The position numbers and the translations under genes are program-made. Positions 1 through 25,335 of a DNA stretch of 30,327 nucleotides are shown piece by piece. Numbering within the stretch: position 1 is the first letter of the stretch; every line of letters starts with the position of its first letter. The notes below the pieces were generated by a model, which did not search any database, had not been told where the DNA came from, and saw only the letters and a program-made list of their open reading frames with translations. This DNA comes from an uncultured Pseudomonas sp. (GTDB lineage: Bacteria > Pseudomonadota > Gammaproteobacteria > Pseudomonadales > Pseudomonadaceae): NCBI RefSeq assembly GCF_946885885.1, contig NZ_CAMPHN010000041.1, positions 1-30,327 on the forward strand, read 5' to 3'.

Positions 1-474
1 GGCGACGACATCCTCAAGGTATCCGCGACCTCGAGCAGCAACCTGCTGTCGGGTGGTGCGGGTAACGACAGCCTCACCGGTGGCTATTACAACGATACCT
101 ACCTGTTCAACCTGGGCGATGGCGTCGACACCATCACCGAGATGGTGAGCGGTAGCTCTTACACCTACACGGACGTGTTGCGTTTCGGCGCCGACCTATC
201 TCCCGAGCAGCTATGGTTCCAGCGCAACGGCAACAATTTGGATATTCTTGTCGAGGGCAGCAGCGACCGGGTTACGGTGAGCAACTGGTATGCCAGTAGC
301 GGTTCCCGGATCGAGCAGATGCAAGCCTCGGGTGGTCTTGCCTTGACTGAAAGCCGGGTGCAGAACTTGGTCGATGCAATGGCGGCCTTCGGTGCACCGG
401 CTGGTGGGGAGTCTAATTTGACGTCGGATCAACGGGAGCAACTTAACGTGGTAATCGCCGCCAACTGGCAGTAA
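1..474 (+). CDS. RTX / haemolysin-type calcium-binding protein, C-terminal end (5' truncated)
   Basis: The reading frame is open from base 1 to TAA at 472-474, giving 157 residues of a protein that starts outside the window. The first part has glycine/aspartate-rich nonapeptide-like repeats (GGAGNDSLTGG, then LGDGVDTI), which in RTX proteins form a Ca2+-binding beta-roll. It is followed by a segment resembling the haemolysin-type calcium-binding-related domain (FGADLSPEQLWFQRNGNN through VTVSNWY) and a short polar tail. Proteins of this type are usually large, secreted by a type I system through a C-terminal signal, and act as toxins, adhesins, lipases or proteases. The catalytic or adhesive part is not visible, so the activity cannot be named. 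A strong hairpin terminator follows 22 bp after the stop. Confidence 0.85.
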   Translation, partial: GDDILKVSATSSSNLLSGGAGNDSLTGGYYNDTYLFNLGDGVDTITEMVSGSSYTYTDVLRFGADLSPEQLWFQRNGNNLDILVEGSSDRVTVSNWYASSGSRIEQMQASGGLALTESRVQNLVDAMAAFGAPAGGESNLTSDQREQLNVVIAANWQ

Positions 475-554: not shown

Positions 555-737
555 GCGGAATTCAAGCGTCGCCTCGGAAGCGACTGGCGACGGTTCGCCT
601 CGGCCTGCGTGCGCGCCAGCCGCAACAAAGGCGAAACGCCGGACTTCGCCCCCATCGCCGAACGCCTGCGCGGTATCGCCTTGCAGGAGCGCGCGCTGAT
701 GAAGGAACTGGGCGCCTGGGCCAAGCGTAAGGGCTGA
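555..737 (+). pseudogene. Possible 3' remnant of an unrecognised gene
   Basis: The frame ending at TGA 735-737 is open for about 60 codons back to an in-frame TGA at 552. It has strongly coding-like composition, with G/C at most third positions and a charged helical sequence (GETPDFAPIAERLRGI, then LMKELGAWAKRKG). There is no convincing start or ribosome binding site, and the RTX terminator lies immediately upstream. This is best explained as the surviving C-terminal end of a disrupted gene. I do not recognise the family. A short real gene with a non-AUG start cannot be excluded. Confidence 0.3.
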
Positions 738-904: not shown

Positions 905-973
905 GTAGGGTGGATGACGCTTTACCCATCCACCAATAACGCTGGTGGATGAAAACGGCGCCATCCACCCTAC
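905..973. repeat. GTAGGGTGGA...TCCACCCTAC intergenic repeat (copy 1)
   Basis: A 69-bp imperfect inverted repeat begins GTAGGGTGGATGACGC and ends GCCATCCACCCTAC. Related copies occur at 14510, 25347, 28413 and 29999. All are intergenic or touch a stop codon. Confidence 0.75.
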
Positions 974-1061: not shown

Positions 1062-1619
1062 CTATAGCTGTAATCGCCGCATAGCCACGCTGGCGCTCAG
1101 GCCTGCGAAGTCGCTCGCCGGTAAACGCCCTTCGCGGCCTTCGAGCAACAGGGCCTGCACGCAGAGGTTCGTCTGCTCGTCGCAGAACACCAGCAAGGCC
1201 TGAGTTGCCAGGCCGTCGTGCAGGTCCAGGGTGGCCAGGCTCAATAGCTGCGCCCAGACCCGTTCGCCGGCGCCGATAAACAGGTTCGGCCCTTCCAACC
1301 CCAGTTGCTGGGCGATATGGAAGCCGGCTGCGTTGCTGACGCTGTTGACGAACTCGAAGGGTTTCGGTTGTTTGTGCTGCACGCACACGGCATCCAGCAG
1401 CGCGCCCATGGTCGGCCGCGATGGGTAGCGTGCGGCCAGGTACAGGCCGCAATCGCTGCGCACCCGATCCTTCAGGGCGGCGGCGCCGAGCAGGGCTTGC
1501 AGGATCAGGCGGTCGATGCGCCGTGGCGGGTTGTCCAGCCACTGGCTCAGGGCGGTTTTCAGCTGTTTGTCGTCGGTCGCGGCCTGGCCGTGGATTTCGC
1601 TGGCGGCAATCACTCTCAT
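1062..1619 (-). CDS. Ketosynthase-like protein without active-site Cys (chain-length-factor-like)
   Basis: This 185-aa protein resembles the short 'beta-ketoacyl synthase-like, N-terminal' family (Pfam Ketoacyl-synt_2) that accompanies true ketosynthases in aryl-polyene-type and other type II clusters. It covers about half a thiolase fold. The segment NSVSNAAGFHIAQQLGL (about residues 92-108) aligns with the nucleophile elbow of the upstream ketosynthase (NTACTSAANGL), but Ser occupies the Cys position, so it should not condense acyl groups itself. Its probable role is as a partner that shapes chain length or initiation; this is inferred. The ATG overlaps the ketosynthase stop codon (ATGA), implying translational coupling. 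It is the last gene of the six-gene operon. Confidence 0.75.
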   Translation of the reverse strand: MRVIAASEIHGQAATDDKQLKTALSQWLDNPPRRIDRLILQALLGAAALKDRVRSDCGLYLAARYPSRPTMGALLDAVCVQHKQPKPFEFVNSVSNAAGFHIAQQLGLEGPNLFIGAGERVWAQLLSLATLDLHDGLATQALLVFCDEQTNLCVQALLLEGREGRLPASDFAGLSASVAMRRLQL

Positions 1620-2737
1620 GCTTGTTCTCCCGGCCGGCACGCCTGCAATACCAGACTGGCGTTGTTGCCGCCGAAGCCGAAGAAGTTCGCCAGCAGCAGG
1701 TCGTCGACCGCGCCAAAGCTTTCGGCGGCCAGCGGCAATATGGCCTCGTCGGCATAGTCCGTGGCCGGCAGTTGGCCCTGGCGCAGTGCCTCGATCAGCA
1801 ATAGCGTCTCGCTCAGGCCGCAGGCGCCGAGGGTATGGCCGAGCCAGGGTTTGAGGGCGCAAAGCGTCGGCATGGCATCGCCGAACAGGCTGTGCATACC
1901 GTTGCTTTCGGCGATGTCGTTGGCGGTGGTGGCAGTGCCGTGCAGCTTGACCAGATCGATCTCGCTGAGCTCACGCCCGGCGCTATGCAGGGCGGCGCGC
2001 ATCACCGCGTCGATATGGCTGCCGTCTTCGCGGGTGCCGGTCAGGCTACTGGTGTCGCAGGCGCTGAAGCCACCGAGCAGGCGGGCCAGCGGCGCGTTGC
2101 CGGGTTCGAGGCAGAGCAGGGCGCAAGTGTAGGCTTCGCCGAGAATCAAGCCGTCGCGTTCGGGATGAAAAGGCCGGTATTGGCCGCTCGGGCTGGTCAG
2201 GCCGAGGGCGCCGAAGCCCTGCATGGCCAGGGCGCTGGGGGTTTCGAAGGCGAGCACGAGCGCCCGGCTGAATTGCCCGCTGGCGACCAGCTTGGCGCCG
2301 TAAATCAGGCCGTTGGCGGCGCTGGTGCAGGCGGTGTTGAGGGTGAAGGCGTCGGCAAAGCCCCAGCGTTGGCGCAGTTGCGCGGCCAGCGAGTCGAGGG
2401 GTGTCGAATGCTCGATGCGAAAGCCCTGGTCGGCGCCGGCCCGGGCTTCCAGCTCGGCGATATCCAGGCCGGTGCTGGCGACTATCAATAAACAGTCAGC
2501 CAGCTCCTGGGGACCATCGCCAAGGGTTTCACGCACTAGCCGATCGAGGCGTTGCTCGAGGTTTTCGTTGGCAGCGGCGCCGAGGGCATGCCAATAGGGA
2601 CGCGTCTGTTGCAGTTCATGCAGGATGAATTCGCCTGCCCGCGGCCGTTCGCCGCTCAACAATGCTCGGGTCGAGCTATCCAGACCCGCGCCCAGTGCGC
2701 TGTGCAGGGCGCCGCGCTGCAAGTAAACCGGGATCAC
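1616..2737 (-). CDS. Beta-ketoacyl-[ACP] synthase (FabF-like)
   Basis: This 373-aa condensing enzyme carries out decarboxylative Claisen condensation of malonyl-ACP with an acyl chain. All three catalytic residues are visible: Cys137 (TACTSAANGL), His266 (KLHGTATTAND) and His301 (LKPWLGHTLGACG). The C-terminal NFFGFGGNNASLVL is typical of the family. I place the start at GTG 2737, which overlaps the ACP stop (GTGA) and gives the expected N-terminus IPVYLQRGALHSALG. The open frame further upstream lies over the ACP gene and is not ketosynthase-like. A length of 373 aa is short against about 410 for FabF. Together with the ACP, dehydratase and KS-like partner it suggests a dedicated fatty-acyl or polyketide product rather than housekeeping synthesis. 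Confidence 0.9.
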   Translation of the reverse strand: MIPVYLQRGALHSALGAGLDSSTRALLSGERPRAGEFILHELQQTRPYWHALGAAANENLEQRLDRLVRETLGDGPQELADCLLIVASTGLDIAELEARAGADQGFRIEHSTPLDSLAAQLRQRWGFADAFTLNTACTSAANGLIYGAKLVASGQFSRALVLAFETPSALAMQGFGALGLTSPSGQYRPFHPERDGLILGEAYTCALLCLEPGNAPLARLLGGFSACDTSSLTGTREDGSHIDAVMRAALHSAGRELSEIDLVKLHGTATTANDIAESNGMHSLFGDAMPTLCALKPWLGHTLGACGLSETLLLIEALRQGQLPATDYADEAILPLAAESFGAVDDLLLANFFGFGGNNASLVLQACRPGEQA

Positions 2738-3000
2738 TGCTGCTGCCTGATAAAGGCGGCGATGCTGGCGATGCTGTTGAGAATCCGCCGGCCGTCTTTC
2801 GCCCCTTCGATGCGCACGCCGTAGTTCTGCTGCAAGGCCAGGGAGACCTGCAAGGCATCCAGGCTGTCCATCTGGATACGGCTTTGGCTGCCGAACAATG
2901 GCTCGTCGTCGGCGATGCTCTGCCAGTCGATATCGTCTTCCTTGTCGCACTCGCGGATCAGCAGCTGCTTGAGTTGTTGTTCTAGTAGTGTGTGGTCCAT
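2734..3000 (-). CDS. Acyl carrier protein
   Basis: This 88-aa protein has an ACP fold and the phosphopantetheine attachment motif MDSLDALQ (Ser46). The pattern around it (IQMDSLDALQVSLALQQNYG) is that of a freestanding type II carrier protein, ending in a hydrophobic helix (NSIASIAAFI). ATG 3000 is chosen because it gives a standard ACP N-terminus; the upstream extension in the same frame overlaps the permease and is arginine-rich. The gene starts inside the last codons of the ABC permease (19-nt overlap) and overlaps the ketosynthase GTG by 4 nt, so the three are almost certainly co-translated. No phosphopantetheinyl transferase is nearby, so a genomic one must serve it. Confidence 0.9.
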   Translation of the reverse strand: MDHTLLEQQLKQLLIRECDKEDDIDWQSIADDEPLFGSQSRIQMDSLDALQVSLALQQNYGVRIEGAKDGRRILNSIASIAAFIRQQQ

Positions 3001-4169
3001 TGCGTTTGCCGTACTCGTCGAGTGAACAGAAGCAGCCCGCCGCCGCCCAGCAGTGCCGCGAACAGCAGCAAGCGGGCGCAATAGGGGGCGATGTCGGCCA
3101 GCGAGCCTTGGCCCACCAGCAGGGTGAGAAAGGCGTCCAGCGCCCAGCTCATTGGGGAGATTTCGGCCAGTTGGCGCATCGCCTCGGGCATCACGCTTTT
3201 CGGCACCATAATGCCGCCGATGGCCGCGAGGATGATATTCAGCCCGCCGCCGAGCAACAACGCTTGCTCGCTGCTGCGCGCCACTGCCGCGAGAAACAGG
3301 CCGAGGCTGCAGGTCGCCAGGCTCAGGCTGAGCGCCAGCAGCGCGTAGGCCAAGGGGTTGCCGGGTAGGCTCAGCGCGGGCAGGCCGATTGCCGGCAGCC
3401 CGTACACGCCCAATGTCAGCAGCAGCACGAACTGCACCAGGTTGATCGCCAGGTAAGGCAGCAGCTTGCTCAACACCAGGCTGCCGAGGCTCAGCCCCAG
3501 GCAGCGGAAACGCAGTAGGGTGCCGCTCTGCTGCTCGCGCTGAAAGCCCGCGGCCATCGGCAGCATGACGAAGAACATGCCGAAGATCAGCCAGGCAGGC
3601 ACGCTCAGTTGGCTGGCATTGGCGCGGCCGCTGAGATCGCCGCTGCTCAGCAACTGCGACTCGGCGATCTCGCTTTGGGTGCGCTGCTGGGCGAGTTCGA
3701 GGCGCTCGTGCAAGGGTGTGTCGGGGGCGATCGCGCCGCTGTCCTCCAGGTAGGCGAGCAGGCGGGTTTGCGCCAGGGCGATGGTCACCGCGCTGCGCAG
3801 ACGCTGGCGGGTCTGCGCATCGGTCTGCGCCGGGTAGCTCAAACGCGGGCCCTGGTGCGGCACGTCCAGCAGGCTGGCGGAGAAGTCGCTGGCCAGGCTG
3901 ATGCGCGGCAATTTCTCGTCGCCGTCTGCGACCAGGCTGCTACCGGCTAACTGAGCCAACAACGCGGCCTGGAACAGTTCGCTGGAATCGCTGGGCTGCG
4001 GCACTTCCAGCACCAAACGCAGCGGTGGCGGTCGATCCTGCAAATAGCTGGACATGGCGCCGGCCATCAACAGCAAAAACAGGGTCGGCATGATAAACAG
4101 CACCGCCAGCGCATGGGGGTCGCGCAGTAGCAGGCGGATTTCCTTGCGCACCAGCGCCGATAGCCTCAT
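2982..4169 (-). CDS. ABC-2 type exporter, permease subunit
   Basis: This 395-aa inner-membrane protein has one N-terminal membrane segment (about residues 20-42, LFIMPTLFLLLMAGAM). A long periplasmic/soluble domain (about 45-215) follows, then a block of about five membrane helices at the C-terminus. This is the topology of ABC-2 (YhhJ/YadH-like) permeases that export hydrophobic or lipid-linked substrates. ATG 4169 forms an ATGA overlap with the ATPase stop. The open frame upstream to 4388 lies inside the ATPase gene and is not membrane-like. Sitting between the ATPase and the ACP, it links transport to the acyl-chain genes. The substrate is unknown; a product of the neighbouring ketosynthase is the natural inference. 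Confidence 0.88.
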   Translation of the reverse strand: MRLSALVRKEIRLLLRDPHALAVLFIMPTLFLLLMAGAMSSYLQDRPPPLRLVLEVPQPSDSSELFQAALLAQLAGSSLVADGDEKLPRISLASDFSASLLDVPHQGPRLSYPAQTDAQTRQRLRSAVTIALAQTRLLAYLEDSGAIAPDTPLHERLELAQQRTQSEIAESQLLSSGDLSGRANASQLSVPAWLIFGMFFVMLPMAAGFQREQQSGTLLRFRCLGLSLGSLVLSKLLPYLAINLVQFVLLLTLGVYGLPAIGLPALSLPGNPLAYALLALSLSLATCSLGLFLAAVARSSEQALLLGGGLNIILAAIGGIMVPKSVMPEAMRQLAEISPMSWALDAFLTLLVGQGSLADIAPYCARLLLFAALLGGGGLLLFTRRVRQTQWTTHY

Positions 4170-5050
4170 AGCCGACCTCCGTTGAGACGCAGATAGAGCT
4201 GCTCCAGCGAGGGGCGACCGAAGCGCATCAGGCTTGGCAGGCCATCCAGGGCCTGAATGAAGCGGGTGATCTCCAGCAGTTGCTCGCCGTTCAACGCAGG
4301 GATGTGCACGCCTTTGGGCAGGAGTTCGCCGCTCAGTTGCAGGCGCGCGAGCAGCGCGTCCAGGCCAGTCGGCGCCGCTTGCGGCCATTCCAGCAACAAC
4401 CCGTGGCTATCGCCGAGCAGTTGGCGGGTATCCAGATCGAGGCGGACCTGGCCTTCGTGCAGCAGCAGAATGCGCTGTGCCACCCGTTCGACTTCGTCCA
4501 GATAGTGGCTGGTGTAGATCGCGCTCTTGCCGGCGGCGACCAGTTGTTCGACCGCGCTCAGCAGCATCTGCCGGCTGCTGGTATCGACCCCCACGGTGGC
4601 CTCGTCGAACAGGTACAGCACGGCCGGTTGCAGCAGGCCGATGGCGAAGTTCAGGCGACGCTGTTCGCCGCCGGAGAGGCGCTCGCTGCGGCGCTGCAAC
4701 TTGTCGCCGAGGTCGGTGCAGGCGATGCACAATTCCAGGCGTTGGCGGCGTTCGCTGCCGCGCAGACGATAGAGGTCGGCGAACAGTTCGAGGTTCTCGC
4801 GTACCTTGAGCCCGGCGTAGAACGCCAATTGTTGCGGCACCAGGCCGAGGCTGCGCGGGCCCTGCCAGATAATCTCGCCCTGCTGCGCCTGCAATACGCC
4901 GCTGAGCAGCGAGAGCAGGGTGGTTTTGCCGGCGCCGTTGCTGCCGAGCAGGCCCAGGCATTCGCCGCTGCGCAGTTGCAGGTCGATGCCGCTCAGCGCC
5001 GGTTGCGCGGCGCCGGGGTAGCGATAGCCGAGGTTGCGTAATTCAAGCAC
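4166..5050 (-). CDS. ABC transporter ATP-binding protein
   Basis: This 294-aa cytoplasmic ATPase powers the adjacent ABC-2 permease. Walker A is GSNGAGKTT (residues 36-44), the signature is LSGGEQRR (125-132), and Walker B is LYLFDEA (145-151), followed by the D-loop region and a switch His in YTSHYLDEVE. A C-terminal extension of about 80 residues follows the nucleotide-binding domain, as in many DrrA/CcmA-type exporters. The start at 5050 lies inside the end of the dehydratase gene (8-nt overlap) and its end overlaps the permease ATG by 4 nt. The spacing argues for one mRNA covering transport and acyl-chain genes. Confidence 0.93.
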   Translation of the reverse strand: MLELRNLGYRYPGAAQPALSGIDLQLRSGECLGLLGSNGAGKTTLLSLLSGVLQAQQGEIIWQGPRSLGLVPQQLAFYAGLKVRENLELFADLYRLRGSERRQRLELCIACTDLGDKLQRRSERLSGGEQRRLNFAIGLLQPAVLYLFDEATVGVDTSSRQMLLSAVEQLVAAGKSAIYTSHYLDEVERVAQRILLLHEGQVRLDLDTRQLLGDSHGLLLEWPQAAPTGLDALLARLQLSGELLPKGVHIPALNGEQLLEITRFIQALDGLPSLMRFGRPSLEQLYLRLNGGRL

Positions 5051-5450
5051 GGACCAATACCAGCAGGAGTTTGCCGTCGAGCAACAATTGCCCGTCGGTG
5101 TGGATGCTGAAGGCGTAGAGCGCGCCGGCCGGACTCAGCGCTTGCTGGGTAGCGGCGACCTGCAACGTGCCCTGACGCTGGCTGGGCTCATGGTGCATTT
5201 GCAGCTGCGAGAGCTTGCCGATCAGCGCCATTTCAATGGCACTGTCGTCGCCGTATAAGGCACCATGCGCGGCGCACAATTGCGCCGCCGCCTCGAACAA
5301 CAGGCAGGGCGAGGCATCTGCGCCGAAGGCCGCCAGGTGATGCCAGGCGCTGAGGCCCTGGATGCTTTGGGCATCGTGACCCAGCAGGCCGTCGAGCCAA
5401 AGCGCCGGGCCCCGGTGCGGCAAGAGGCGCTGTAATTGAGTGCGGTCCAT
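5043..5450 (-). CDS. Hotdog-fold 3-hydroxyacyl-ACP dehydratase-like protein
   Basis: This 135-aa protein begins LLPHRGPALWLDGLLGHD, the opening strand/helix pattern of FabA/FabZ and the ApeP-like dehydratases of aryl-polyene clusters. LLFEAAAQLCAAHGAL is the central hotdog helix, where Glu53 matches the FabZ catalytic Glu. His37/His38, about 15 residues earlier, are candidates for the catalytic His; this alignment is tentative. Expected role: dehydration of 3-hydroxyacyl-ACP, or acyl recognition. It is the first gene of the six-gene operon and overlaps the ATPase by 8 nt. There is no good Shine-Dalgarno before ATG 5450, so a weak initiation site or a different start is possible. The promoter must lie in 5451-5577, shared with the divergent methyltransferase-like gene. 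Confidence 0.75.
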   Translation of the reverse strand: MDRTQLQRLLPHRGPALWLDGLLGHDAQSIQGLSAWHHLAAFGADASPCLLFEAAAQLCAAHGALYGDDSAIEMALIGKLSQLQMHHEPSQRQGTLQVAATQQALSPAGALYAFSIHTDGQLLLDGKLLLVLVRA

Positions 5451-5577: not shown

Positions 5578-6132
5578 ATGCTGTGGTTGCAGGGGCTGGG
5601 ATTGTTGTTGGGGTCGCTATTGTTGGTCGGGATTTCCTGGCGGTCGCTACGCCGCCCGCATTCCCACGGTTTTTACCGCTTCTTCGCCTGGGAGGCGATG
5701 TTGGGGTTGCTCGTGGCGAACGCGCCCGTGTGGTTCGACGACCGCTATGCGGCGCATCAATTGCTCTCCTGGGCGCTGCTGTTCGGCTCGCTGCTGGTGT
5801 TGTTTCTCGGCCTGTATCAATTGCGCAGCGCCGGCCGCCCCGATGCCCGCCGCGACGATGCCGGGCTGTTCGCCTTCGAGCGCACGTCGCAGTTGGTTAG
5901 CAGTGGAATTTTTCGCTACATCCGCCATCCATTGTATTGCTCGCTGCTATTGCTGGCATGGGGCATTTGCTGGAAGCAGGCCAATGGCCTGACGGTCGGG
6001 TTGGCGTTGTTCGCCAGCCTTATGCTCTACCTGACCGCGAAACGCGACGAGGCCGAGTGCCTGGCCTATTTCGGCGATGCCTATGCGCGCTATATGCAGC
6101 GCAGCCGAATGTTTATTCCCTGGCTTATCTAG
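5578..6132 (+). CDS. Isoprenylcysteine carboxyl methyltransferase-family membrane protein
   Basis: This 184-aa integral membrane protein has about four to five hydrophobic helices. The C-terminal signature of the ICMT/PEMT family is present: GIFRYIRHPLYCSLLLL (Arg-His-Pro-x-Tyr, about residues 113-129), then KRDEAECLAYFGDAYARYMQ and RMFIPWL at the end. Family members transfer a methyl group from S-adenosylmethionine to a carboxylate, lipid or small-molecule acceptor at the membrane. The bacterial substrate is usually unknown. An AAGGAG ribosome binding site precedes ATG 5578. It is divergent from the ketosynthase/ABC operon, so co-regulation and tailoring of that product are possible but unproven. 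Its TAG stop is the CTAG target duplication of a MITE-like element. Confidence 0.8.
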   Translation: MLWLQGLGLLLGSLLLVGISWRSLRRPHSHGFYRFFAWEAMLGLLVANAPVWFDDRYAAHQLLSWALLFGSLLVLFLGLYQLRSAGRPDARRDDAGLFAFERTSQLVSSGIFRYIRHPLYCSLLLLAWGICWKQANGLTVGLALFASLMLYLTAKRDEAECLAYFGDAYARYMQRSRMFIPWLI

Positions 6133-8812: not shown

Positions 8813-8896
8813 GCTGAATTCCCTATACATGGTTATGATGCGTGACAGAGCGGGAACGGTAACGGCGGCAAATCGTGCGAGTCTCAATCCGCATAG

Positions 8897-9035
8897 CAGG
8901 CTGTTGAAAAACGTAGGCGAGGCAGGCGAGACAAGGCAAAAATGGTCGAGAAAGCGGAGTTTACTGTTGTAAATGAGCATTTCGAGACCATTTTTAACGC
9001 AGGATCGGCCACGTAGGTAGTTTTTCAACAGCCTG
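8897..9035. mobile_element. MITE-like element, copy 2 (139 bp)
   Basis: It begins CAGGCTGTTGAAAAAC and ends GTTTTTCAACAGCCTG (16-bp perfect terminal inverted repeats), flanked by ATAG on both sides (8893-8896 and 9036-9039). The internal stem is AAAAATGGTC / GACCATTTTT. It lies between the divergent lipoprotein and pip genes and so separates or supplies their promoters. Confidence 0.82.
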
Positions 9036-9091
9036 ATAGCCGTTTGCACAGAAGCGCTAACCGTGCCCTACGTACAAGCCAGGAGAGCACC

Positions 9092-11798: not shown

Positions 11799-12527
11799 CT
11801 AGAACGTCTCGCTCCAGGGCCGCAGATCCATTTCGTGCACCCAGCAATCGCGCGGCTGGCAATGGATCTGCCAATAGGTGTCGGCGATATGCGCGGGGTC
11901 GAGGATGCCGCCCTGCTCCTTGCGCTGGTACAGCTCGGGAAAGTTGTCGCGGATAAAGGCGGTATCGATGGCGCCATCGATGATCGGGTGGGCCACATGA
12001 ATGCCCTGTGGGCCGAGTTCGCGGGCCATGCTCTGGGCCAGGGCGCGCAGGGCGAATTTGGCGCTGGCGAAGGCTGAGAAGTTGGCCCGGCCGCGCAGCG
12101 AGGCGGTGGCGCCGGTGAAGATGATGCTGCCGCGTCCGCGCGTCAGCATGACTTTGGCCGCTTCGCGACCGGTGAGGAAACCGGCCAGGGCGGCCATTTC
12201 CCAGACCTTGCGATAGACCCGCTCGGTGGTTTCGGTGATGGAGAACTGCACGTTGGCGCCGATATTGAACACCACCGCTTCCAACGGGCCAACCTCGCGT
12301 TCGATGGTGGCGAACAACTCGACCACCTGTTCCTCGATGCGCGCATCGCAGCCGAAGGCGCGGGCGCTGCCGCCTTCTGCCTCGATGGCTGCGACCAGGG
12401 GCGCCAGTTTGTCGGCATTACGCCGCACCACGCAGGCGACATAGCCTTCGCGGGCGAAGCGTTTGGCGATGGCGCCGCCGGTTGCGTCGCCGGCCCCCAC
12501 CACCAGGATGGCTTTGCGTTCTGTCAT
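11799..12527 (-). CDS. SDR-family oxidoreductase-like protein with Phe at the catalytic Tyr
   Basis: This 242-aa Rossmann-fold protein has a nucleotide-binding turn (LVVGAGDATGGAIAKRF; Gly11, Gly13, Gly17/18), the Asp61 adenine contact (GCDAR), and FNIGANV where classical SDRs have NNAG. The active-site Ser143 is present (FTGATAS) and Lys157 is in place, but the YxxxK motif reads FASAK, so Phe153 replaces the catalytic Tyr. It may use another proton donor, be a weak enzyme or have a binding role; the substrate is unknown. GGAGA lies just upstream of ATG 12527. It is divergent from an HxlR regulator across 100 bp containing two matching palindromes, which suggests direct control by that regulator. 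Confidence 0.85.
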   Translation of the reverse strand: MTERKAILVVGAGDATGGAIAKRFAREGYVACVVRRNADKLAPLVAAIEAEGGSARAFGCDARIEEQVVELFATIEREVGPLEAVVFNIGANVQFSITETTERVYRKVWEMAALAGFLTGREAAKVMLTRGRGSIIFTGATASLRGRANFSAFASAKFALRALAQSMARELGPQGIHVAHPIIDGAIDTAFIRDNFPELYQRKEQGGILDPAHIADTYWQIHCQPRDCWVHEMDLRPWSETF

Positions 12528-13157: not shown

Positions 13158-13368
13158 GTGGGAGGGGTTTCAGCCGCGACGCTTACAGCGCCTTTAACAG
13201 GCCGTTGAAAAACGTTGGCGAGGCAGGCGAGACAAGGCAAAAATGGCCGAAAAGGCGGAGTTTACTGCTGTAAATGAGCACTTTGAGGCCGTTTTTAACG
13301 CCGTCTCGGCTACGTAGGTAGTTTTTCAACAGCCTGTTAAGGTCCATCGCGGCTAAAGCCCCTCCCAC
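13158..13368. repeat. REPIN (GTGGGAGGGGYTTYAGCCGCGAY arms) interrupted by a MITE-like element
   Basis: The left arm 13158-13180 and right arm 13346-13368 are inverted copies of a 23-bp REP. The space between them is almost entirely the 139-bp MITE-like element at 13198-13336. Uninterrupted relatives lie at 15848, 20183 and 22064. Confidence 0.75.
13198..13336. mobile_element. MITE-like element, copy 3 (139 bp)
   Basis: It begins CAGGCCGTTGAAAAAC and ends GTTTTTCAACAGCCTG, and is flanked by TTAA on both sides (13194-13197 and 13337-13340). The internal stem is AAAAATGGCC / GGCCGTTTTT (one wobble pair). It has exactly the same length as copy 2. Confidence 0.82.
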
Positions 13369-14593: not shown

Positions 14594-15817
14594 CTATGCC
14601 GCATCGCGGGCCGCTCCCTGACGATGGGCCGCAATCCGTTCGATCAGGGCCTGCAGAATCGCCGCCGAGTCGCCGATCACCGAGAGGTCGGCGCGTTTGA
14701 TCATGTCGCAGCCGGGGTCCATGTTCACTGCCACTACCTTGTCGCAGGCACCGATGCCCTGTAGGTGCTGAATCGCCCCGGAAATGCCGACGGCCAGATA
14801 AACCCGCGCGCTGACCCAGGTGCCGGTGGCGCCGACCTGACGGTTGCGCGGCATGAAGCCGTCGTCCACCGCCACGCGCGAGGCGCCCTCGGTGGCGCCG
14901 AGGGTTTTCGCGGCCTGGTGGAACAGCTCCCAGTCCTTGACCCCGTTGCCGCCGGAGAGAATGAATTCGGCTTCGGCCATGGGGATCAGCGCCGGGTCCA
15001 CCGCCACCGCGCCGAGATCCTGGATCCGTGGCAGATGGCGGACGATCTGTTCGCTGAGCTCGATTGGCCGCACTTCATGACGGGTTTCGCTGACCGGCTC
15101 GGCGCATTCGGCGGCGGCCAGGATCAGCCGTGGCGCTTGCCGTACCAAGTCCTCGCGGCCTGCACCGGCGCGGCCGCTGGCTTGGCCATCGGCCACCTGC
15201 CAGACCCGGGTCGCCGGGCGTTCGCCGAGTTTGGCGGCCAGCCGGCGGCCCAGCTCGCCGCCACCGCTGCGGCTGTCGGGCAGCAGCCAGTGGCGCGGCG
15301 CCAACTGGCTTTCCACCGCGCTCAAGGCCAGCACGCGCGCTTCCGGGGCGTAACCCTCGAAGGCTTCGCCTGTGAGCTGCAGCAGGCGGTCGACGCCGTT
15401 GCAATCGAAGGCGCTTTCTTTGTGCTCGCCGAATACCACGGCCACTACCGCGCCGTCGTTGCCGGCGAGTTTGTGGGCCAAACCGAGCAGGTCCTTGTCG
15501 TGGCTGCTCAGGCGGCCGCCGACCATGTCCGGCACCACCACGATATGGAAGGCCGGCTGTTCGACGCTATGCAGCGGCAGCTGCACCGCTTCGGTCGTGC
15601 TGCTGCGTTTGCCGGTACCGCCCTGCTGGACGCCGGAGCGGTCGATGCGCTTGATCCCGTTGGGGCCGATAAAGCCGAGCGCATGAGGATTCTTGCGGAT
15701 GATGCCGTTGGGGCCCATCCAACTACTTTCAGCCTTCTGCATCGCCGCGTGCAGCGGATGCAGGCGGTTGCGGGCGATCCACTCGGCGCGTGGGTCGCGG
15801 CGGATAATGTCGCTCAT
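14594..15817 (-). CDS. Electron transfer flavoprotein, alpha subunit (FixB family; dimethylglycine pathway)
   Basis: This 407-aa protein is larger than the usual ETF alpha of about 310 aa because of an N-terminal extension of about 85 residues. The extension contains two GPNGIxR motifs (MGPNGIIR and IGPNGIKR). The ETF N-terminal domain then follows (HIVVVPDMVGGRLSSHDK). The C-terminal FAD domain, about residues 285-395, has ILSGGNGVKDWELF, VGATGTWVSARVYLAVGISG and AIQHLQGI, which are conserved flavin contacts. Expected role: heterodimer with ETF beta that accepts electrons from DgcA/DgcB. The order dgcA-dgcB-alpha-beta on one strand supports this. A REPIN lies between it and dgcB. Confidence 0.9.
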   Translation of the reverse strand: MSDIIRRDPRAEWIARNRLHPLHAAMQKAESSWMGPNGIIRKNPHALGFIGPNGIKRIDRSGVQQGGTGKRSSTTEAVQLPLHSVEQPAFHIVVVPDMVGGRLSSHDKDLLGLAHKLAGNDGAVVAVVFGEHKESAFDCNGVDRLLQLTGEAFEGYAPEARVLALSAVESQLAPRHWLLPDSRSGGGELGRRLAAKLGERPATRVWQVADGQASGRAGAGREDLVRQAPRLILAAAECAEPVSETRHEVRPIELSEQIVRHLPRIQDLGAVAVDPALIPMAEAEFILSGGNGVKDWELFHQAAKTLGATEGASRVAVDDGFMPRNRQVGATGTWVSARVYLAVGISGAIQHLQGIGACDKVVAVNMDPGCDMIKRADLSVIGDSAAILQALIERIAAHRQGAARDAA

Positions 15818-22609: not shown

Positions 22610-23902
22610 TTATTCGCTGCCTACCTGGCGCAAATAGGGGGCGGGCGCAGCACCGAGGTTACTGAGCATCCGCTCGCTGTACCAGTCCATGAAATTGACC
22701 ACACCGAACTCGTAGGTCTTCGAGTACGGGCCCGGCTGGTAGGCCGTGGAGTTGATCCCGCGCTGATTTTCCTCGCCGAGGCGGCGGTCCTGATCGTTGG
22801 TCGCATCCCAGACCTGGCGCAGGCGCGCGACATCGTAGTCGACGCCTTCGACCGCATCCTTGTGCACCAGCCATTTGGTGATGACGATGGTTTCCTGGGC
22901 GCTGATCGGCCACACGGTGAAGTTGATCAGGTGATCGCCCATGCAGTGGTTCCACGAGTGCGGCAGGTGCAGGATGCGCATCGAACCGAGGTCCGGGTTC
23001 TGGATTCGGCCCATCAACTTGTTGCAGCCCTGCTTGCCGTCCATGGTCATGGAAACGGTGCCTTTGAGCAGCGGCATGCGCACGATACGGTTGCGCAGGC
23101 CGTAACCGGCATGCAGGTAAGGGATCTTCTCCGCCTCCCACTTGGCCGCCGAGTCAGCCACGTGGTCCTTGAATTCCTGGCTGGCGCGCGGGTCGTTGGT
23201 GTCGTCCCATTCCAGCAGGGTGTTGAGCAGTTCCGGGTGCGAACCGTTGCAGTGGTAGCACTCGCGGTTGTTCTCGATCACCAGCTTCCAGTTGGCCTGC
23301 TCGCGCATGGTGCTTTGCACTGCGACCTTGGTGTTCTCCATGTCGTAGGGCTCCATGTAGTGAGCCAGACCGGAAAGGAACTCATCGATGGCCGGCGGGT
23401 TTTCCGCCAGGGAGATGAAGATGAAGCCGCCGGCGGTCTTGCAGTGCACCGGCTTGAGGTTGTAATCGCTGAGCTTGAAGTCTTCGCCCATCTCGCTGCC
23501 GGCGAACAGCAGGCGGCCGTCCAGCTCGTAGGTCCACTGGTGGTAGGGGCAAACCAGCTTGGCGACCTTGCCCTTGTCGCTGACGCACAGACGCGAGCCG
23601 CGATGCCGGCAGACGTTATGGAAGGCATGCACAACGCCTTCGGCGCCACGGATGACGATGATCGGGTTGTCGCCCAATTGCAGCGTCAGGTAGTTGCCCT
23701 TGGCGGGGATCTCGCAAGTCATGCCGGCGATCAGCCATTCCTTATGGAAGATCTCCTGCATGTCGATCTGGAACAGTCGCTCGTCGTTATAGAACGGCTG
23801 CGGCAGGGAAAAGGTACGCTCGCGGGTTTGCAGCATTTCGGCGGTGGCCTTGCGCGCTGGTTCCAGCGGGTCGCCCAAGCTCAGGGTGGAAGTGACGTCC
23901 AT
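22610..23902 (-). CDS. gbcA: Glycine betaine monooxygenase, Rieske oxygenase subunit
   Basis: This 430-aa cytoplasmic oxygenase converts glycine betaine to dimethylglycine and formaldehyde with electrons from GbcB. The Rieske [2Fe-2S] ligands are CRH (Cys98, His100) and CPYH (Cys118, His121). The mononuclear iron region is ENNRECYHCNGSHPELL, giving His217 and His222. The length and C-terminal MDWYSERML agree with the GbcA family. ATG 23902 has GAGGAG 6 nt upstream; the long upstream frame is not Rieske-like. A perfect hairpin lies just upstream of the ribosome binding site. It is divergent from gbcB across 332 bp, where both promoters must lie, and is followed by a microprotein and a terminator. 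Confidence 0.96.
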   Translation of the reverse strand: MDVTSTLSLGDPLEPARKATAEMLQTRERTFSLPQPFYNDERLFQIDMQEIFHKEWLIAGMTCEIPAKGNYLTLQLGDNPIIVIRGAEGVVHAFHNVCRHRGSRLCVSDKGKVAKLVCPYHQWTYELDGRLLFAGSEMGEDFKLSDYNLKPVHCKTAGGFIFISLAENPPAIDEFLSGLAHYMEPYDMENTKVAVQSTMREQANWKLVIENNRECYHCNGSHPELLNTLLEWDDTNDPRASQEFKDHVADSAAKWEAEKIPYLHAGYGLRNRIVRMPLLKGTVSMTMDGKQGCNKLMGRIQNPDLGSMRILHLPHSWNHCMGDHLINFTVWPISAQETIVITKWLVHKDAVEGVDYDVARLRQVWDATNDQDRRLGEENQRGINSTAYQPGPYSKTYEFGVVNFMDWYSERMLSNLGAAPAPYLRQVGSE

Positions 23903-24234
23903 CGGTGACTCCTCAATGGCAATCGCGTTTGCGATTGCCGCAAAAAAGTGGCTGTTCGGTGTTGCTACGCAAGGTTGCTGGCGTCCTGCTGATCGGTGTG
24001 TTGCACCGGCCTGCGGCGTGCTTCTTCGGCATGAGCTGAGTGTGGAGTTGGTCGTGCTGGCGACCTTATCCATGGGCGACATGGCGGCATCCGTTTCCGA
24101 CGCGGCAAGCCGCGTGCTCAGTGGCAGGTCGCGATAAGTATGTCAGTGTCGTTGGTAGATAAGTGGCTATCCTGAGCGTTACGCACAATCGCTCCATCAG
24201 GCCGGCAACAGGCCCCGTGCACGAGAGAACGACC
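23903..24234. promoter_or_regulatory. Divergent gbcA/gbcB promoter region
   Basis: This 332-bp gap has no gene. It contains a perfect hairpin in the gbcA leader (GGCAATCGC/GCGATTGCC, GTTT loop, 23918-23939), 15 nt before the gbcA start. On the gbcB side are two direct GATAAGT repeats (24133 and 24158, 25 bp apart), about 70-100 bp before the gbcB start. Both genes are known GbdR targets in Pseudomonas. I do not know the consensus well enough to call the site. Confidence 0.55.
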
Positions 24235-25335
24235 ATGTCGAACGACTTCCTCAATCCGGTTACCACCCAGACCTGGAGCAACGGCCGCCACTTGGTGCGC
24301 TGCGTCAAGGTTATCCAGGAAACCTGGGATGTACGCACCTTCTGCTTTATGGCGGATCAGCCGGTGCTGTTTTTCTTCAAGCCGGGGCAGTTCGTCACCC
24401 TGGAGTTGGAGATCGACGGTCAGCCGGTCATGCGTTCCTACACCATTTCCAGCTCGCCTTCGGTGCCCTACAGCTTTTCCATCACCATCAAGCGGGTGCC
24501 GGGCGGCAAGGTCTCCAACTGGCTGCACGACAACCTGCAAGAAGGTACGGTGCTGCCGGTGCACGGCCCGGTCGGGTTGTTCAACGCCATGGACTTCCCG
24601 GCGGACAAGGTGCTGTTTCTCAGTGGCGGCGTCGGCATCACCCCGGTGATGTCGATGGCGCGCTGGTTCTACGACACCAACGGCGCTGTCGATATGGTCT
24701 TCGTGCACAGCGCGCGCTCGCCGAAGGACATCATCTACCACCGCGAGCTGGAACACATGGCTGCGCGGATCAACAACTTCAGCCTGCACGTGATCTGCGA
24801 AAAGCACGGTTTTGGCGAAGCCTGGGCCGGTTACCGCGGTTATCTCAACCAGAAGATGCTGGAGCTGATCGCCCCGGATTATCTGGATCGGGAGATTTTC
24901 TGCTGTGGACCGACGCCCTATATGAACGCGGTCAAGCACCTGCTGCAGAACAACGGCTACGACATGCAGCGTTACCACGAAGAGTCCTTCGGCGCGACGC
25001 CGCCGGAAGTGCGCGCCGAGGTCTCGGAGCTGGCCGCCGAAGCCGCCGACGCGCCGCCGGTGCCGGCCGCCGATCAGCACCAGGTGACCTTCGCCGCCAC
25101 CGGCAAGAGTATCCGCATCAACCCCGGCGAAACCGTTCACGCCGCGGCCGCCAAGCTCGGCCTGCATATCCCCAAGGCTTGCGGCATGGGCATTTGCGGC
25201 ACCTGCAAGGTGATGAAAACCGCCGGCGAGGTAACCATGGAACACAACGGCGGGATCACCGACGAAGATGTTGCCGAGGGTTATATCCTCTCCTGCTGCA
25301 GCGTCGCCCAGGGCGATGTGACCATCGATTATTGA
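24235..25335 (+). CDS. gbcB: Glycine betaine monooxygenase, ferredoxin reductase subunit
   Basis: This 366-aa reductase passes electrons from NAD(P)H through FAD and a [2Fe-2S] cluster to GbcA. The FAD-binding RSYTIS motif is at residues 67-72, the nucleotide-binding SGGVGITP follows at about 130, and the CCGP motif lies near 225. A plant-type ferredoxin domain occupies the last about 90 residues, with ACGMGICGTCK and a final Cys in LSCCSVAQG. ATG 24235 gives the family N-terminus SNDFLNPVT; the ribosome binding site is only AGAG. It is divergent from gbcA and followed by a short GTGGACA repeat. Confidence 0.96.
   Translation: MSNDFLNPVTTQTWSNGRHLVRCVKVIQETWDVRTFCFMADQPVLFFFKPGQFVTLELEIDGQPVMRSYTISSSPSVPYSFSITIKRVPGGKVSNWLHDNLQEGTVLPVHGPVGLFNAMDFPADKVLFLSGGVGITPVMSMARWFYDTNGAVDMVFVHSARSPKDIIYHRELEHMAARINNFSLHVICEKHGFGEAWAGYRGYLNQKMLELIAPDYLDREIFCCGPTPYMNAVKHLLQNNGYDMQRYHEESFGATPPEVRAEVSELAAEAADAPPVPAADQHQVTFAATGKSIRINPGETVHAAAAKLGLHIPKACGMGICGTCKVMKTAGEVTMEHNGGITDEDVAEGYILSCCSVAQGDVTIDY

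What the first reader, a model, noticed from the sequence alone, without database searches (positions are those of the whole stretch)
1062..5450. Six-gene overlapping operon joining a type II ketosynthase set to an ABC-2 exporter
All six minus-strand genes overlap by 4-19 nt in the order dehydratase, ABC ATPase, ABC permease, ACP, ketosynthase (intact Cys137/His266/His301), Cys-less KS-like protein. The KS-like partner and dehydratase recall aryl-polyene clusters, but the acyltransferases, ligase, ketoreductase, methyltransferase-like tailoring set and MMPL exporter expected there are absent, and an ABC-2 exporter lies in the middle of the operon. The simplest reading is a minimal pathway that borrows FabD/FabG from the host, builds a short acyl or polyene chain on its own ACP and exports it or a lipid carrying it. 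I do not recognise a described system with this composition.
Basis: partly seen in the sequence, partly recalled or inferred. Interest (0 to 1): 0.75.

Follow-up and report, generated by a model that had tools for sequence, protein, structure and literature searches.

The report
Half of a split pigment-lipid gene cluster
These six genes look like the chain-building and export half of a known kind of bacterial pathway that joins an aryl-polyene pigment to a resorcinol lipid, and here the facing half has been cut off, leaving only the tail of one of its genes.

Summary
In detail: six intact minus-strand genes, 1062-5450, overlap by 8, 4, 19, 4 and 4 nt. The interpretation changes. The block matches, in gene kind and order, the darF-darI-darC-darJ-darK segment (ABC ATPase, permease, ACP, ketosynthase, small protein) of dialkylresorcinol (DAR) clusters, with a FabZ-like dehydratase added. 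Such clusters make the resorcinol half of flexirubin/arcuflavin-type pigments. Of the 80 best loci, 57 have the block's permease; all 57 have ATPase-permease-ACP-KS in order, 30 have all six, and 53 hold darA, darB, darD and darE in the fetched stretch; in the other four darA lies elsewhere in the genome. Of 298 Pseudomonadaceae genomes, 37 have the small partner; all 37 have DarA and an ApeP-family dehydratase. So this is a truncated or rearranged APE-DAR locus. The role of the block (substrates for DarB or the polyene, export) is inferred; darAB alone can make DAR in a foreign host, which weakens the first. Whether the break is genomic or an assembly join is untested.

The parts
5043..5450 (-). 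DH: FabZ/ApeP-like hot-dog dehydratase, first gene of the block
   Evidence: His12 and Glu53 invariant in 13 sequences; model, mean pLDDT 88.7; FabZ chains best, ApeI:P 6qsr_B rank 17
4166..5050 (-). ABC transporter ATPase (DarF counterpart)
   Evidence: Pfam ABC_tran 88 bits; motifs
2982..4169 (-). ABC-2 permease (DarI counterpart)
   Evidence: Pfam ABC2_membrane 85.7 bits, ABC2_membrane_3 82.2 bits
2734..3000 (-). Acyl carrier protein (DarC counterpart), Ser46 in DSL
   Evidence: PP-binding 18.8 bits, below the 20.8 cut-off; NF006617 46.1 bits, below its cut-off of 70; Ser46
1616..2737 (-). Ketosynthase (DarJ counterpart), triad Cys137/His266/His301
   Evidence: Pfam Ketoacyl-synt_C 67.6 bits; best PDB sequence match 6qsp_A, which is ApeO (title); triad invariant in 26 sequences
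1062..1619 (-). Half-size ketosynthase-like partner (DarK counterpart by position), ApeC-like, without nucleophile
   Evidence: hhalign A3 vs PF13723-type set, probability 96.9%; 7f28_C/A first, 6qsp_B = ApeC rank 11
573..737 (+). 3' stub of darE (BtrH-like; NCBIfam name DarH): last 54 codons and stop, tail to tail with the block
   Evidence: 83% identity over 54 aa to DarE of L083; nt 581-737 83% identical to L091 13739-13583
1..474 (+). 3' end of an RTX-type gene, lying where the rest of darE and darD/B/A stand in relatives
   Evidence: Pfam HCBP_related 30.6 bits; matches at E <= 1e-20 in 35 of 298 Pseudomonadaceae genomes
5578..6132 (+). PEMT/ICMT-type methyltransferase, divergent neighbour
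   Evidence: Pfam PEMT 28.7 bits; a relative in 30 of 57 block loci
905..973 (.). Dispersed repeat between darE stub and KS-like gene (REP-like is my own label), also in relatives
   Evidence: blastn

Best explanation
The six genes are the chain-building and export half of an aryl polyene-dialkylresorcinol (APE-DAR, flexirubin/arcuflavin-type) cluster in a Pseudomonas-like genome, and the facing half (darA-darB-darD-darE) is cut at this site, leaving 54 codons of darE. SHOWN by sequence: gene identities, conserved order, co-occurrence with DarA and with an ApeP-family dehydratase, the stub. INFERRED mechanism, as the most likely: on the dedicated ACP the KS/half-size-CLF pair extends an acyl chain; host FabG reduces it and the FabZ-like DH removes water; the resulting 3-oxoacyl and 2-enoyl thioesters are the two kinds of substrate that DarB condenses to a cyclohexanedione, which DarA aromatises; the BtrH-like DarE would transfer the aryl-polyenoyl group to the resorcinol; the ABC-2 pair moves the product across the inner membrane. 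I give the membership about 0.9 and the precursor-supply step about 0.5. In this genome the block either serves dar genes kept elsewhere or is left without its partner.
For: darA, DarB, DarG-family, DarH, ATPase, permease, ACP, KS, KS-like run on one strand in L039 and L041; in L041 DarB, flexirubin DarG and DarH pass their NCBIfam cut-offs, in L039 the StlD/DarB subfamily, DarG_fam and DarH do. Same kinds and order in the Azoarcus table. 53 of 57 block loci hold darA, B, D, E in the fetched stretch; 0 of 23 loci without the permease hold darA, B or E there, some of these contigs being short. DarA in 16 of 16 block genomes tested. 37 of 37 KS-like-positive genomes among 298 have DarA and ApeP-family hits; 8 of the 37 are genomes of loci I already held. 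L030 is titled Pseudomonas sp. 8O, in which PMC10165715 reports a hybrid APE-DAR cluster. darE stub. ApeC is described as half the size of its partner with one thiolase domain (PMC8358021 passages), and the KS-like fold is nearest to such chains. DarB chemistry from a passage in PMC5515871. Relatives of the DarA query are named dialkylresorcinol condensing enzyme by NCBI.
Against: darA, darB and darD are absent from the window and no genome is held, so a working DAR pathway is not shown here. darB and darA of C. pinensis alone gave, in a foreign host, a DAR identical to that of a flexirubin (PMC3992019 passage), and a darC mutant of P. chlororaphis still makes some HPR (PMC6403133 passage): a dedicated ACP and KS are not strictly needed for ring formation. 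Two genomes (G143, G265) have darAB without the block. DH is found in only 30 of 57 block loci, and in 34 of 37 family genomes at the block: one lacks it and two weak hits lie beyond darA. Genome counts are not corrected for phylogeny. No substrate or product was tested.
Confidence: 0.75

Rival explanations
1. The KS, KS-like partner and DH serve the aryl-polyene chain (a second ApeO-ApeC-like pair) or its transfer, not the resorcinol's alkyl chains, while the ABC pair exports the finished hybrid.
For: KS best PDB sequence match is ApeO and the KS-like fold is nearest ApeC-type chains; all 37 block genomes sampled have an ApeP-family gene; darAB alone can make DAR in a foreign host.
Against: The APE-type core beside the block in L007 has two KSs, a FabG-type KR and ApeP of its own; alteromonad loci carry a separate PF13723 ApeC-like protein besides the block's partner; in L039 and L041 the genes directly follow dar genes.
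Confidence: 0.3
2. The break at about 573 is an assembly join or contig error; the real genome has an intact dar operon facing the block.
For: The source of the window is unknown; in all 37 family genomes with the KS-like gene DarA is on the same contig within about 6 kb; the left flank is lower in GC (about 58% against roughly 60-70% in the block).
Against: The RTX end is of a type found in Pseudomonadaceae (35 of 298 at E <= 1e-20), best in G174, whose KS and DH are the closest found; G004 (L017 and L083) shows block and dar genes on separate contigs, though its contigs could be short pieces of one region.
Confidence: 0.25
3. One reading: a self-sufficient, undescribed minimal pathway making and exporting a short acyl or polyene lipid.
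For: The window itself shows no darA, darB, darD or aryl-polyene core gene, and the six genes show no sign of decay: 2, 1 and 0 changes at otherwise invariant columns for KS, KS-like and DH, pN/pS 0.13-0.43 against L091.
Against: Co-occurrence with DarA in all genomes tested and a darE remnant at the locus itself.
Confidence: 0.08

Closest known systems
DAR (dar) gene cluster of Azoarcus sp. BH72, arcuflavin pathway (PMC3949708: outline, passages, sections 3, 18 and 22 read)
   Same: ABC ATPase, ABC permease, ACP, KS, small hypothetical protein in the order darF-I-C-J-K
   Different: Window has a FabZ-like DH at the head, no darA, B, D, only a darE stub; Azoarcus has PilT and prevent-host-death proteins between ATPase and permease. 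Compared by annotation and order only
Flexirubin-type dar operon of Chitinophaga (L041 here; PMC3992019, passages seen)
   Same: ATPase, permease, ACP, KS, KS-like in the same order behind darA, DarB, DarG, DarH
   Different: No DH found; KS-like is 347 aa and still matches PF13723; KS only 36% identical over residues 132-364
Hybrid APE-DAR clusters V1-V3 of marine Pseudomonadaceae (PMC10165715, section 18 read; figure not held)
   Same: L030 is titled Pseudomonas sp. 8O, a strain named there; it holds the six genes, the four dar genes and ApeP with flanking KSs
   Different: In the window the dar operon is cut and no APE core was found in the 30 kb
ApeO-ApeC ketosynthase/chain length factor (PDB 6qsp; 7f28 by inference; PMC8358021, passages seen)
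   Same: KS with Cys-His-His beside a half-size, nucleophile-free partner
   Different: KS-like protein has no PDB sequence match at E <= 10; it stands with dar genes, not in the APE segment
HPR (2-hexyl-5-propylresorcinol) darABC of P. chlororaphis (PMC6403133, passages seen)
   Same: DarA and DarB
   Different: The two sampled darAB loci without the block (L086, L087) are probably of this type; L087 has a PP-binding protein after darB; no ABC pair or KS-like gene was labelled there

Membership tests
Dialkylresorcinol (dar) cluster, Azoarcus/flexirubin type | ABC ATPase, permease, ACP, KS and small partner in the darF-I-C-J-K order | tested here: met
Dialkylresorcinol (dar) cluster, Azoarcus/flexirubin type | darB cyclase and darA aromatase at the locus | tested here: not met
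   No DarA, DarB or DarD hit at E <= 1e-4 in the 30,327-base window; the locus as it stands is not filed as a complete DAR cluster
Dialkylresorcinol (dar) cluster, Azoarcus/flexirubin type | darA/darB anywhere in the same genome | not testable with these tools
   No genome held
Dialkylresorcinol (dar) cluster, Azoarcus/flexirubin type | BtrH-like darE | tested here: inconclusive
   Only the last 54 codons were found
Aryl-polyene (APE) cluster | APE core (ApeP, KR, adenylating enzyme, ammonia lyase, acyltransferase, glycosyltransferase) at the locus | tested here: not met
   Queries from L007 and L031 give no hit at E <= 1e-4 in the window; the ApeO query finds only the block's own KS; a distant SDR at 11799-12527 is below the cut-offs of the 25 models shown
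ApeO-ApeC type KS-CLF pair | Half-size partner without nucleophile, ApeC-like fold | tested here: met
ApeO-ApeC type KS-CLF pair | Heterodimer formation | not tested
   No complex prediction or experiment
FabZ/ApeP hot-dog dehydratases | Hot-dog fold with conserved His and acid | tested here: met
   profile match to ApeP weak (A5 vs A6, probability 59%); catalytic role of the residues is inferred

The most novel reading that the evidence does not exclude
The block has outlived its resorcinol partner: in this lineage the KS/half-CLF/ACP/DH set with its ABC-2 exporter works without DarA/DarB and makes and exports its own acyl product, so the dar accessory half is a self-sufficient lipid module that can be re-used.
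Probability: 0.12. Interest if true: 0.55.

Novelty: new variant of a known kind. Interest (0 to 1): 0.3.

Why it matters
It places a ketosynthase/ABC-exporter block, listed in a DAR cluster in 2014 without an assigned role in the passages I read, as a constant partner of DarA in the Pseudomonadaceae sampled, and gives testable roles: supplying acyl chains to DarB (or to the polyene) and exporting the product. A locus where the facing dar operon is cut would be a natural test of whether the block has a function of its own.

Tried and rejected
Stand-alone pathway: rejected by co-occurrence. Plain APE fragment: rejected as the main reading, since the APE core genes beside it are separate and the block follows dar genes in L039 and L041. 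Decay of the block: looked for, not seen, but comparison with distant relatives cannot show recent relaxation. A closer relative to test the junction: not found; best KS identity is 71% in 149 genomes of the genus of G174, 11 of them with a match at E <= 1e-100. PDB sequence search with the KS-like protein: 0 hits; with DH: 3 hits at E 0.44-1, taken as chance. Rfam: 0 matches. Plasmid collection, near mode: no match with the KS DNA. Papers giving a function to the ABC/KS part of dar clusters: none recognised in the listings (open-licence PubMed Central only; some searches listed 12 of 28, 15 of 23 and 15 of 31 papers); the paper behind the NCBIfam names DarG/DarH was not recognised. The DarA query has no Pfam or NCBIfam match; its name comes from source names.
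Full report
WHAT IS THERE. The window carries six open minus-strand genes between 1062 and 5450 with overlaps of 8, 4, 19, 4 and 4 nt: a FabZ-like dehydratase, an ABC ATPase, an ABC-2 permease, an acyl carrier protein, a ketosynthase with Cys137/His266/His301, and a 185-residue ketosynthase-like protein without the nucleophile. Order and overlap are conserved: of 57 loci with the block's permease, all 57 have ATPase-permease-ACP-KS in order and 30 (L001-L030) have all six. In these 30 a start codon giving the same overlap exists in 29, 30, 25, 29 and 26 for the five junctions.

NEIGHBOURHOOD. Of these, 57 hold the block's permease and 53 of the 57 hold darA, darB, darD and darE within the fetched stretch; none of the 23 loci without the permease holds darA, darB or darE there (tblastn over 60 bits; some of these contigs are short). 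The four exceptions are L017, L031, L032 and L035. Whole-genome searches found DarA in all 16 block genomes tested, these four included. For L017 the genome has darA, B, D and E together on another contig (L083). In Sulfurimonas L039 and Chitinophaga L041 the genes run darA-darB-darD-darE-ATPase-permease-ACP-KS-KSlike on one strand. In L041 DarB, flexirubin DarG and DarH pass their NCBIfam cut-offs; in L039 the StlD/DarB subfamily, DarG_fam and DarH do. NCBIfam's DarG and DarH stand where Azoarcus has darD and darE; the Azoarcus paper uses darG/darH for other proteins. That table lists darA, B, D, E, F (ATPase), I (permease), C (ACP), J (ketosynthase), K (hypothetical), the same kinds in the same order as here apart from the inserted pair.

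FAMILY SURVEY. In 298 Pseudomonadaceae genomes drawn by the tool, the KS-like profile hits 37, DarA 39, DH 36 and the ApeP family 170 (168 over its cut-off, 0 of 14 control genomes). All 37 KS-like genomes are among the DarA and the ApeP genomes, and in all 37 DarA lies on the same contig within about 6 kb. Eight of the 37 are genomes of loci I already held. DH is missing in one of the 37 (G168), and in two (G184, G222) the hit is weak and lies beyond darA, so DH stands at the block in 34 of 37. Two genomes (G143, G265) have DarA without the block: their loci hold darA and darB, probably the HPR type of P. chlororaphis. Genomes are not independent samples, so the Fisher values are only a guide.

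THE BREAK IN THE WINDOW. At 573-734 the plus strand encodes the last 54 residues of a BtrH-like DarE (83% identical to DarE of L083), followed by a stop at 735-737. Window 581-737 matches L091 13739-13583 at 83%, and window 1209-6132 matches L091 13138-8238 at 78%, in the same relative order. Left of about 573 the match ends and the window shows the 3' end of an RTX-type gene (1-474), a kind found at E <= 1e-20 in 35 of 298 Pseudomonadaceae genomes. No DarA, DarB or DarD match exists in the window. So the facing dar operon is cut at this site. I cannot tell a genomic rearrangement from an assembly join, and no genome is held. The six block genes show no unusual number of changes at conserved positions (KS, KS-like and DH checked) and pN/pS of 0.13-0.43 against L091.

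HOW IT MOST LIKELY WORKS. DarB joins an activated 3-oxoacyl chain to a 2-enoyl chain to form a cyclohexanedione (passage in PMC5515871, citing Fuchs 2013, which I did not see). A KS with its half-size partner, a dedicated ACP and a dehydratase, with the host's FabG and FabD, could yield these two kinds of substrate. I infer this role for the block, at about 0.5. Against it, darB and darA of C. pinensis alone gave in a foreign host a DAR identical to that of a flexirubin (PMC3992019 passage), and a darC mutant of P. chlororaphis still makes some HPR (PMC6403133 passage). The block may instead serve the polyene side or set chain length and yield. BtrH-type acyltransferases move acyl groups from a carrier protein (recalled), so DarE is a candidate for joining polyene and resorcinol; this too is inference. 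The ABC-2 pair is the natural exporter of the product; its cargo is unknown. A relative of the methyltransferase at 5578-6132 is found in 30 of 57 block loci and stands directly before the ATPase in two Marinobacter loci, L037 and L038, so it may belong to the pathway.

VERDICT. The block belongs to a known kind of cluster, in a variant that is split and truncated here. The claim of an unrecognised minimal pathway is not supported, though a function of the orphan block on its own is not excluded.

Noticed in passing
   Followed up: yes
window:6427-8367: GDSL lipase with autotransporter beta-domain; a relative lies near the dar operon in L083.
   Followed up: partly
window:13725-25335: Glycine betaine catabolism region: GbcA 22610-24082, GbcB 24163-25335 and Etf alpha 14594-15817 pass NCBIfam cut-offs; dimethylglycine dehydrogenase-like genes lie between (last point recalled).
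   Followed up: partly
window:6130-6314, 8894-9048, 13195-13349: Three dispersed copies of an intergenic repeat (60 and 58 nt parts, 72-82% identical to the first copy; two copies 89% over 145 nt), with similar stretches in L091.
   Followed up: no
L017 and L083 (one genome, G004): Block and darA-B-D-E on separate contigs; a second possible split APE-DAR arrangement.
   Followed up: partly
L031, L032: Alteromonad loci where the block is followed by a phosphopantetheinyl transferase-like gene and APE-type genes, with DarA elsewhere in the genome.
   Followed up: partly
L024: The block's ATPase is read in two ORFs in this MAG contig; L025's KS-like gene carries one in-frame TGA in its genome G007.
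   Followed up: no
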